DNA from: Brachyspira aalborgi
Lineage (GTDB): Bacteria > Spirochaetota > Brachyspiria > Brachyspirales > Brachyspiraceae
Reading direction: 5' to 3'
Length of the DNA stretch: 64,000 bases
Assembly (NCBI RefSeq): GCF_008016455.1
Contig: NZ_SAXU01000001.1
Coordinates: 2,252,423-2,316,422 of the forward strand
Shown: in pieces, positions 56,371 to 58,578 of the stretch
Numbering within the stretch: position 1 is the first letter of the stretch
Layout of the letters: every line of letters begins with the position of its first letter
Position numbers and translations under genes: made by a program
Notes under the pieces: model-generated
Databases searched by the model: none
Told to the model about the DNA's origin: nothing
Seen by the model: the letters and a program-made list of their open reading frames with translations, nothing else

Positions 56371-56398
56371 TTGACATTTTTTATAAAACATGTATAAT
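56371..56398 (+). promoter_or_regulatory. Promoter of leader ORF 5 and the Gtr-like module
   Basis: TTGACA (56371-56376), 16-bp spacer, TATAAT (56393-56398). The transcript should start near 56405, ahead of a strong AAAGGAG. Confidence 0.8.
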
Positions 56399-56442
56399 AT
56401 TAAAAAATTGATTGTAATTGTCGAAAAAGGAGAGCATGAAAA

Positions 56443-56508
56443 ATGAGCGGATGTAAATTCTACAATACAATACAATACAATACAATACAATACAAGCCAT
56501 TATTATAA
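56443..56508 (+). CDS. Leader ORF 5 with pentanucleotide repeat (early-stop frame)
   Basis: ATG 56443 has a clear ribosome site (AAAGGAG, 56426-56432), so this leader is the best supported as translated. It runs through the TACAA tract (repeating IQYNT) and stops at TAA 56506-56508. One more unit would place it in a frame open from 56495 to TGA 56609-56611, which forms an ATGA overlap with ATG 56608 of the next gene, a classic coupling arrangement. The third frame stops at 56586, 19 nt short of the gene. Confidence 0.62.
   Translation: MSGCKFYNTIQYNTIQYKPLL
56461..56495 (+). repeat. Pentanucleotide tandem repeat (TACAA)7 in leader ORF 5
   Basis: A 35-bp perfect tract, seven units, in the same promoter-leader-gene position as the four other pentanucleotide tracts. 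Confidence 0.95.
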
Positions 56509-56607
56509 TTTTTGGCTGTTTTTTCATTGCAAAACTAAAGAATTATTTGAAACATTTAAACGCTACTTTTGGCGTCTACAAAAATTAACTATCAAGGAGA
56601 TAACTCT

Positions 56608-58578
56608 ATGAAATCTAAAAGTAAAAATTTATTTCTAAAAATTTATATTCCGTTTGTGATTGTTACGATTATCGCTTTAGTCGTTTTACAAATATTGGGT
56701 TCTAAAAAGAGAGTTGGATATTTAACCGACTTCAAATTAAATGTTGCTAAAACTTTAGAATTAAATAATTTAAATATATACAGTTTTACCGAAGAAGGAT
56801 TTAAAAATTATTTATTAACTAATGATAGTATAACAAACTGTATTTATGGTTTTAGAATTAGATATTATGATAAAGTTTTTAGAAACAGCGATATTTACGG
56901 AGTTTATCCCGATTTATCAAACTTGCCTGATTATATGAAAAATGCAGAAATGGACGAGGGAGGTAGTCCTTACGGAAATTTTATTTCTGACAAAAAAGAG
57001 ATTGAAAAGAAAATTGATAATATTAATTATATTTTGAAAATAAAAATTAACTTTATTATAATTTTGGCAGTTATAATATTGACTACATTGTGTATATATT
57101 TGTTATCGCCATATTTAATAGAAATAGCAAATATTCTAATAGAAAATGATTTTAATGATAATAATTTTAATTTCACAAATAAAATTTTAAATATTGCTTT
57201 TTATATTTATATTATATTGCTGTCAATAATTATTTTATCATCGAATTTATTTACAATTATAACTGTTGATGACTGGGTCTATTCTTCAAATTGGGGACTT
57301 TATAATATTTATAATTTTTACGGATATTTTTGGCATAGAGGTAGGCATTTTGTAGAAATTTTAATAGCATTGAGTATGAGACCTTTTGGAAATATACTAA
57401 TATCATTTGGTATCGAACCTTTTTATGCATTAAAAATATCAAATGCTGTCTTTATATTAATATATTATTATTTAATATCAATATCCGTTTCTTTATTTAT
57501 ATGGATATTAAATAACAAAAGGAATTATAAATTGACTTGGTTGACTACATTTTTATTTACGCTATGTCTTACAGGACTTAAAGGCAATTGGACATTTTTA
57601 GCAGCTTATATAGCGTCAGCTGGAATAGCATTATTAATTTGGTTACCTATGTTATATTATTTCATTTATGAGAAAGAATTTATTTTAGGTAGAAATAAAA
57701 TTTTATATTATTCTATATTTACTTATTTAATATATTTTGCGACTTTTACTATTGAACCTACATCTCTTACTATATCGGGATTATCGTTATTTATTTTGAT
57801 ATATTATATAAACATAGATAAAAAAATATTTGCTGAAAATCATTCTTCTAAACCTAAAAAATATATAATTTTCTTTTTGATTTTATTTATAATATCAACA
57901 GTTATTGCATTTCTTTTAACTTTATTTTCTGGTAGAGGACAAACTCAAATAAAAGTAGTAGATAATTCTTCACCTATTAATAATATTATAAACGCTTTTG
58001 CAGATTTCGGCATATTTGAAAAATTTCTTATTTTATTTGCCGTTATATATATAATTTTCTTAATAAGTAAATTTATCAAATTAAAAAAAATATCTAAAAT
58101 TGATTATATTTGTTTCTCTGTATTATTTGTAGCTCTTTTAGGAATATTTGGATTTTCCGCTATAAAACTAACAACCTCTAATATATTGTTAGAATTTTTA
58201 TTAATATTTATAGTTTTATTATTAATTTTATTAAAAAATATAAATAATAAAACTATATGGAATGCTATATCTTCCTTTATCATTATAGGATTAATTATAA
58301 TAATGGGGATGCAAGTTTATATAGATTATGATAATCATTTTAAATCTTCATTTTATAAAGATGGTAAATCGGATTATAAACTTCTTCAACTTTTTATTGA
58401 AGCTGATAAATTAGGAAATAGCGAAATAATATTAACAAAAGAGGATATAAAAAATTTAAGTTTAGAATCTCACAATATAAAAAATTATAGCGAGGAACTG
58501 CCAAACATATATATATCTAATTGGATGCTATATTACGGTTATACAAAAAAATTAATATTAATTAGAGTAGAAGATTAA
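56608..58578 (+). CDS. Multi-pass GT-C-type glycosyltransferase-like membrane protein
   Basis: The 656-aa protein has an N-terminal helix, a soluble loop of about 110 residues and then ten or more transmembrane helices. The segment TVDDWVYSSNWGLYNIYNFY with a later HRGRHFVEIL (about 220-255) resembles the catalytic DDW...GR loop of DUF6056/GtrII-type transferases that move sugars from polyprenol carriers onto surface glycans. I start at ATG 56608 (AAGGAGA eight bases upstream, ATGA overlap with leader ORF 5), not at the in-frame TTG 56569. A methyltransferase and a GtrB-like gene follow. Acceptor and sugar are unknown. Confidence 0.72.
   Translation: MKSKSKNLFLKIYIPFVIVTIIALVVLQILGSKKRVGYLTDFKLNVAKTLELNNLNIYSFTEEGFKNYLLTNDSITNCIYGFRIRYYDKVFRNSDIYGVYPDLSNLPDYMKNAEMDEGGSPYGNFISDKKEIEKKIDNINYILKIKINFIIILAVIILTTLCIYLLSPYLIEIANILIENDFNDNNFNFTNKILNIAFYIYIILLSIIILSSNLFTIITVDDWVYSSNWGLYNIYNFYGYFWHRGRHFVEILIALSMRPFGNILISFGIEPFYALKISNAVFILIYYYLISISVSLFIWILNNKRNYKLTWLTTFLFTLCLTGLKGNWTFLAAYIASAGIALLIWLPMLYYFIYEKEFILGRNKILYYSIFTYLIYFATFTIEPTSLTISGLSLFILIYYINIDKKIFAENHSSKPKKYIIFFLILFIISTVIAFLLTLFSGRGQTQIKVVDNSSPINNIINAFADFGIFEKFLILFAVIYIIFLISKFIKLKKISKIDYICFSVLFVALLGIFGFSAIKLTTSNILLEFLLIFIVLLLILLKNINNKTIWNAISSFIIIGLIIIMGMQVYIDYDNHFKSSFYKDGKSDYKLLQLFIEADKLGNSEIILTKEDIKNLSLESHNIKNYSEELPNIYISNWMLYYGYTKKLILIRVED

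What the first reader, a model, noticed from the sequence alone, without database searches (positions are those of the whole stretch)
56371..56611. Leader 5: strong ribosome site, OFF as sequenced, ATGA coupling one unit away
AAAGGAG precedes leader ATG 56443. Seven TACAA units give a stop at 56506. Eight or five units give an open frame to TGA 56609-56611 that forms ATGA with the GT-C gene start. ATGA overlaps are a known form of translational coupling, and this leader has the best evidence of translation.
Basis: partly seen in the sequence, partly recalled or inferred. Interest (0 to 1): 0.72.

Follow-up and report, generated by a model that had tools for sequence, protein, structure and literature searches.

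The report
Repeat-switched leader coupled to surface gene
A five-letter DNA repeat sits inside a tiny reading frame just upstream of a membrane-protein gene in a Brachyspira gut spirochete, and gaining or losing one repeat decides whether ribosomes reading the tiny frame arrive at the gene's start; the same layout is found at dozens of loci across the genus, so it looks like a general on/off switch for surface genes.

Summary
A 12/12 sigma-70 promoter (56371-56398), AAAGGAG and ATG 56443 precede seven TACAA units (56461-56495). Seven units end the leader at TAA 56506. Five, 8 or 11 units carry it to TGA 56609, overlapping the gene's ATG 56608. It is one of many: 464 kb of this Brachyspira genome holds 22 arrays (17 five-mers, 5 seven-mers, none of 3, 6 or 9), roughly 100 per genome. 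Across the genus, among leaders with 110 nt or more between array and gene, 83% keep an exit frame open to the gene start, against 8% of ordinary genes over the same length. The open frame persists through the last 30 nt (45 of 49, 22 expected), so reaching the start codon matters. Best explanation: slipped-strand phase variation of a leader ORF translationally coupled to the gene. ATGA itself is ordinary (54% of control ATGs are followed by A), translation is unproven, the gene has its own strong Shine-Dalgarno site, and the GT-C label found no support. Closest precedent: S. gallolyticus pil1. New variant of a known kind.

The parts
56371..56398 (+). Promoter: TTGACA (56371-56376), 16-nt spacer, TATAAT (56393-56398)
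   Evidence: 12 of 12 consensus matches; similar promoters precede every array counted, because a promoter match was required for inclusion
56426..56432 (+). Leader Shine-Dalgarno AAAGGAG, 10 nt before ATG 56443
   Evidence: sequence; kept in paralogues L043, L045, L048
56443..56508 (+). Leader ORF as sequenced (7 units): MSGCKFYNTIQYNTIQYKPLL, stop TAA 56506-56508
56461..56495 (+). Array of 7 perfect TACAA units; 7, 7, 9 and 9 units in four near-identical leaders of the same genome
56495..56524 (+). Weak terminator-like element: AGCCA (56495-56499) pairing with TGGCT (56513-56517), then G and six T (56519-56524); the early stop lies in its loop
   Evidence: -4.8 kcal, reached by 15% of shuffles; CGCCG/CGGCG in CACTA-type leaders, broken in L040 and L075; not found by the strict terminator scan
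56586..56588 (+). TAA that ends the leader when n = 6, 9 or 12 (22 nt before the gene start)
56594..56599 (+). Shine-Dalgarno AAGGAG of the downstream gene, inside the leader ORF when n = 5, 8 or 11
56608..56611 (+). ATGA: gene start ATG 56608 overlapping leader stop TGA 56609 (n = 5, 8 or 11)
56608..58578 (+). Downstream gene, 656 aa, predicted mostly helical membrane protein; N-terminal about 210 residues shared with 8 other matches in this genome and with members across the genus; GT-C function unverified

Best explanation
This is a phase-variable leader ORF translationally coupled to a surface-membrane-protein gene. Slippage in the TACAA array changes the unit number and therefore the frame in which ribosomes leave the array. 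With 5, 8 or 11 units the ribosome translates through the gene's Shine-Dalgarno site and stops at TGA overlapping the gene's ATG, so it can re-initiate there or keep that site open and the mRNA occupied (ON). With 4, 7 or 10 units it stops 10 nt after the array and leaves about 100 nt untranslated (OFF or low; the sequenced state). With 6, 9 or 12 it stops 22 nt short (probably intermediate). Shown: promoter, Shine-Dalgarno sites, start, array, stops, recurrence of the layout across the genus, and retention of an open frame up to the gene start. Inferred: that the leader is translated, that slippage occurs in culture, that coupling raises expression, and by how much.
For: Exact anatomy. Unit lengths are 4, 5 or 7 only, never a multiple of 3: 22 arrays in 464 kb, 55 array loci in the genus. 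An exit frame stays open over 110 nt before the gene in 83% of leaders versus 8% of ordinary genes; 9 of 11 conservative clusters versus 2.5 expected, P about 1e-6. Openness runs through the last 30 nt to the start codon (45 of 49 versus 22 expected), which coupling or fusion needs and an upstream terminator would not. Stop-free frames survive divergence between relatives in every pair tested. In the family of this gene the in-frame fusion frame is usually the closed one while one or both others overlap the gene start (+1, +8), in several species with AAAC, AACA or AAGCAAC arrays. At an MBOAT gene the ATGA geometry is kept in three species with three different repeat units (CAATA, ATCGC, ACCGC). 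Near-identical leaders carry 7 or 9 units in this genome, and two close relatives with an identical promoter and leader start have 10 versus 11 CAACA units, predicted ON versus OFF. As a group, the ribosome-binding site of leader-headed genes costs more to open than in ordinary genes (6.4 versus 4.6 kcal, P 0.002).
Against: No expression, translation or within-strain variation data. The gene has its own good Shine-Dalgarno site, and at this locus no structure hides it, so uncoupled initiation could be substantial. The group effect on opening cost disappears against shuffles for this genome. Leader tails show no amino-acid constraint. Some related leaders fail the rule (L020, L040, L049, L069). 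Loci share ancestry, so counts are not independent.
Confidence: 0.66

Rival explanations
1. Phase-variable transcription attenuation, as in S. gallolyticus pil1: translating ribosomes open the hairpin-U6 element just after the array and let RNA polymerase through.
For: AGCCA/TGGCT plus six T lies directly after the array; the arms change together between TACAA-type and CACTA-type leaders. The mechanism is proven for GCAGA repeats in S. gallolyticus (PMC3894217).
Against: The stem is weak (-4.8 kcal here versus -18.7 reported for pil1) and broken in L040 and L075; leaders of other species with the same frame design lack it. In leader 5 all three frames bring the ribosome into the hairpin (the early stop lies in its loop), so it cannot separate the states; in pil1 a stop inside the hairpin is an ON state. 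It does not explain why the frame stays open through the last 30 nt to the start codon.
Confidence: 0.13
2. Rho-dependent polarity: an early leader stop leaves RNA unprotected and Rho ends transcription before or within the gene; long leaders protect it.
For: Rho is present; early stops leave about 100 nt untranslated.
Against: The gene's own Shine-Dalgarno site would allow translation after about 100 nt; the AT-rich tail is C-poor; protection need not reach the start codon, yet it does.
Confidence: 0.1
3. The array is inside the gene's true N-terminus and slippage makes or breaks one long fusion protein (classical phase variation).
For: True for some other loci here: the gene frame is open through the array at window 781, L064, L068, L073, L074.
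Against: For this gene the gene frame is closed by TAA 56506 and further stops, so no unit number can fuse; the same holds for most relatives of this gene.
Confidence: 0.02
4. The array tunes the 5' UTR (RNA stability or spacing) or is neutral; the open frames have another cause, such as unrecognised small protein genes.
For: No direct evidence of leader translation or of coupling; the gene keeps a good Shine-Dalgarno site.
Against: Absence of units divisible by 3 and of stops up to the gene start points to frame; no amino-acid conservation expected of small proteins.
Confidence: 0.09

Closest known systems
Streptococcus gallolyticus pil1 and pil3 leader-peptide phase variation (Danne et al. 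2014, PMC3894217)
   Same: Five-base repeats inside a short leader ORF with its own promoter and ribosome site upstream of a surface gene; unit number changes leader length; a short leader is low, a long leader high
   Different: There the long leader opens a strong transcription terminator (-18.7 kcal); here the long leader runs into the gene's start codon, the terminator-like element is weak and not shared by other species' leaders, and the layout is repeated at roughly 100 loci per genome instead of two
Haemophilus influenzae lex2A/lex2B
   Same: Tetranucleotide repeats lie in lex2A (PMC6479036, PMC2651432) while the glycosyltransferase is given as lex2B (PMC3116884); a separate short repeat-bearing ORF before the enzyme gene is from my own knowledge
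   Different: One locus; coupling geometry was not checked here
Classical SSR frame-shift phase variation (H. influenzae lic genes, Neisseria and Campylobacter contingency loci)
   Same: Slippage-prone repeats of non-triplet units controlling surface-carbohydrate genes
   Different: There the repeat is in the gene itself; here it is in a separate leader and the gene product is unchanged
Start-stop translational coupling (ATGA overlaps, for example in ABC-transporter gene pairs, PMC3711429)
   Same: Stop of the upstream ORF overlaps the start of the next
   Different: Constitutive there; here the overlap exists only for one repeat-number class

Membership tests
SSR-driven phase variation (contingency locus) | Perfect tandem array with a unit not divisible by 3, in a translated or promoter position | tested here: met
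   TACAA x7.0; only 4-, 5- and 7-mers among 55 array loci
SSR-driven phase variation (contingency locus) | Unit number varies between otherwise similar copies | tested here: met
   7, 7, 9, 9 units in near-identical leaders of this genome; 10 versus 11 CAACA in two close relatives. Variation within one strain not tested
SSR-driven phase variation (contingency locus) | Reversible expression switching | not testable with these tools
   no expression data
Translationally coupled gene pair | Upstream ORF stops at or just past the downstream start | tested here: met
   TGA 56609 with ATG 56608 for n = 5, 8 or 11; recurrent across the genus
Translationally coupled gene pair | Downstream initiation depends on upstream translation (hidden or weak ribosome site) | tested here: inconclusive
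   gene has AAGGAG; opening cost at this locus not above shuffles; group cost above ordinary genes
S. gallolyticus-type leader attenuation | Strong intrinsic terminator between leader and gene | tested here: not met
   weak -4.8 kcal hairpin plus six T; strict terminator scan finds none; absent in other species' leaders
S. gallolyticus-type leader attenuation | Short-leader stop lies well upstream of the terminator, long-leader stop in or past it | tested here: not met
   the early stop 56506 already lies in the hairpin loop 56500-56512
GT-C glycosyltransferase (downstream gene) | Match to a GT-C family or fold | tested here: inconclusive
   no Pfam, NCBIfam or PDB sequence match; model pLDDT 48

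The most novel reading that the evidence does not exclude
Brachyspira carries a genus-wide switchboard of roughly 100 loci per genome in which the hypermutable repeat is kept outside the gene, in a modular promoter-leader cassette. That cassette is copied in front of unrelated surface genes and acts by period-three translational coupling with high, intermediate and low states.
Probability: 0.5. Interest if true: 0.78.

Novelty: new variant of a known kind. Interest (0 to 1): 0.63.

Why it matters
The papers on Brachyspira genomes that I could read do not mention simple-repeat phase variation, yet this genome has about one such array per 20 kb, before glycosyltransferase, acyltransferase, methyltransferase, PTS and other genes. 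If the switch works as proposed, it would give these spirochetes heritable surface diversity in the gut, matter for serotyping and vaccine antigens, and show a design in which one portable leader makes any gene phase-variable without altering its protein.

Tried and rejected
N-terminal fusion for this gene: rejected, the gene frame is closed after the array. Attenuator as a general mechanism: hairpin absent in other species' leaders and not discriminating here. Leader peptide conserved as a protein: no codon-position signal. Ribosome-site occlusion at leader 5: not seen. A clustering at finer grain gave P 5e-16 but left homologues unclustered, so I rely on the coarser test. Structure of the gene product: model unusable, so no fold search was made.

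Full report
What is there. The window lies in a 2.50 Mb genome of the genus Brachyspira. Changing the unit number in silico gives three classes: n = 4, 7, 10 stop 102 nt before the gene; n = 5, 8, 11 stop at gene position +1; n = 6, 9, 12 stop at -22.

Not an isolated oddity. TACAA arrays of four or more units occur at seven places in the genome, and near-identical leaders there carry 7, 7, 9 and 9 units. A leader of the same origin with CACTA units precedes further genes. In 464 kb of this genome, 400 kb of it taken at near-even steps, there are 22 arrays: 17 of five bases and 5 of seven, none of 3, 4, 6, 8 or 9. Without the window it is 17 in 400 kb, so roughly 100 in the genome. In other species the same gene family is headed by AAAC, AACA, AAGCAAC, AAACAAC or CAACAAG arrays; long AAAC arrays are found in 16 of 26 genomes of the genus.

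What the leaders share. For 55 array loci I recorded, without reference to frame, the best downstream gene start and the first stop in each exit frame; two were artefacts, leaving 53. For leaders whose tail is at least 110 nt, 83% have a frame without stops over that length, against 8% of 99 ordinary genes of the same genome. With strongly merged clusters the excess remains: 9 of 11 clusters against 2.5 expected, P about 1e-6. Random mutants with as many substitutions as separate two relatives would often have lost the open frame, yet it is kept in all pairs tested (pairs share members). The frame stays open right up to the gene: of 49 leaders open to -30, 45 are open to the start codon where ordinary upstream sequence would leave 22. 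This is the main argument for coupling at the start codon, or fusion, over relief of a terminator farther upstream. Loci share ancestry, so these numbers overstate independent evidence.

Two designs occur. In one, including leader 5, the gene's own frame is closed soon after the array and one or both other frames overlap the gene start by 1 to 20 nt. In the other (window 781, L064, L068, L073, L074) the gene frame is open through the array, giving a longer protein. An MBOAT gene shows the first design in three species with three different repeat units and the same ATGA. Two close relatives with an identical promoter and leader start have 10 and 11 CAACA units, predicted ON and OFF. ATGA as such is not informative: 54% of ordinary ATGs here are followed by A.

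Mechanism. The best-supported reading is a phase-variable leader coupled to the gene. Shown: anatomy, recurrence, frame retention and copy-number differences between related leaders. Inferred: translation of the leader, slippage within a culture, and dependence of the gene on leader translation. The weak point is the gene's own AAGGAG. Leader-headed genes as a group have ribosome sites that cost more to open than ordinary genes (6.4 versus 4.6 kcal, P 0.002), but leader 5 does not exceed its shuffles, so the OFF state may be leaky. A hairpin with six T follows the array; it is weak, broken in two relatives' leaders and absent in other species, and the early stop sits inside it, so an attenuator of the S. 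gallolyticus kind would not tell the frames apart. Rho is encoded and polarity remains possible.

State in the sequenced genome. Of 29 leaders of this genome with an assignable start, 25 are in an early-stop state and 4 overlap the gene, fewer than one third; start choice was automatic, so this is an indication only.

Downstream genes. They include a GT10 (fucosyltransferase-like) gene, FkbM methyltransferases, PMT_2, GT8 and PTS EIIBC, and MBOAT and radical SAM. The gene of leader 5 has a conserved N-terminal 210 residues and a divergent remainder, and no family match; GT-C is unverified.

Known relatives. Danne et al. 2014 (PMC3894217) proved that GCAGA repeat number in a leader peptide controls S. 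gallolyticus pil1 by attenuation: same logic, different output. H. influenzae carries repeats in lex2A (PMC6479036, PMC2651432). Among the open-access papers searched, none was found that describes simple-repeat phase variation in Brachyspira, and three genome papers do not mention it. I therefore rate it a new variant of a known kind.

Noticed in passing
window 781-807 and gene 961-1665: ACAGT array whose gene frame is open straight through (fusion design); as sequenced the leader stops 2 nt after the array. Tail carries a hairpin of the type GATAACTTAT-stem-TTTTGTTATA.
   Followed up: partly
window 26548-26599 and gene 26691-27803: AATTC x10.4 leader before a GT10 (fucosyltransferase-like) gene; predicted ON as sequenced (stop at gene +8), one of few in this genome.
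   Followed up: partly
window 41744-42861, minus strand: AATTC x14.6 leader on the minus strand before an FkbM-type methyltransferase; predicted OFF, open frame ends at gene +11.
   Followed up: partly
window 49427-50024: CAAGC x10.6 leader before a 122-aa gene; open exit frame stops 5 nt before the start; predicted OFF.
   Followed up: partly
L064, L068, L074, L075 (AAGCA and GAACA arrays) and window 781: Leaders share a hairpin about 30-60 nt before the gene: ATAACT/AGTTAT-like outer helix with a variable inner stem (CAAGGA/TCCTTG, CAGAGA/TCTCTG, CGAATA/TATTCG), suggesting a conserved RNA element.
   Followed up: no
L115, L116, L117, L062, L063, L075 and G000:C1:584365-584425 (L048): The same promoter-leader module stands before unrelated genes (methyltransferase, radical SAM, PMT_2 and others), ending at different points in the tail; in L048 it is joined in frame to another ORF. 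It behaves like a portable cassette.
   Followed up: partly
alignment A1; proteins of L034, L040, L041, L042, L010-L035: The gene family combines a conserved N-terminal 210 residues with highly divergent C-terminal membrane parts, as if 5' modules recombine with varied 3' ends.
   Followed up: no
L045 (G000:C1:128304 onward): A TACAA x9 leader precedes a copy of the gene that breaks off within its first 70 codons (stops), a pseudogene.
   Followed up: no
29 leaders of the window's genome: 25 of 29 leaders are in an early-stop state, fewer ON than one in three, perhaps selection for few expressed genes at a time.
   Followed up: partly
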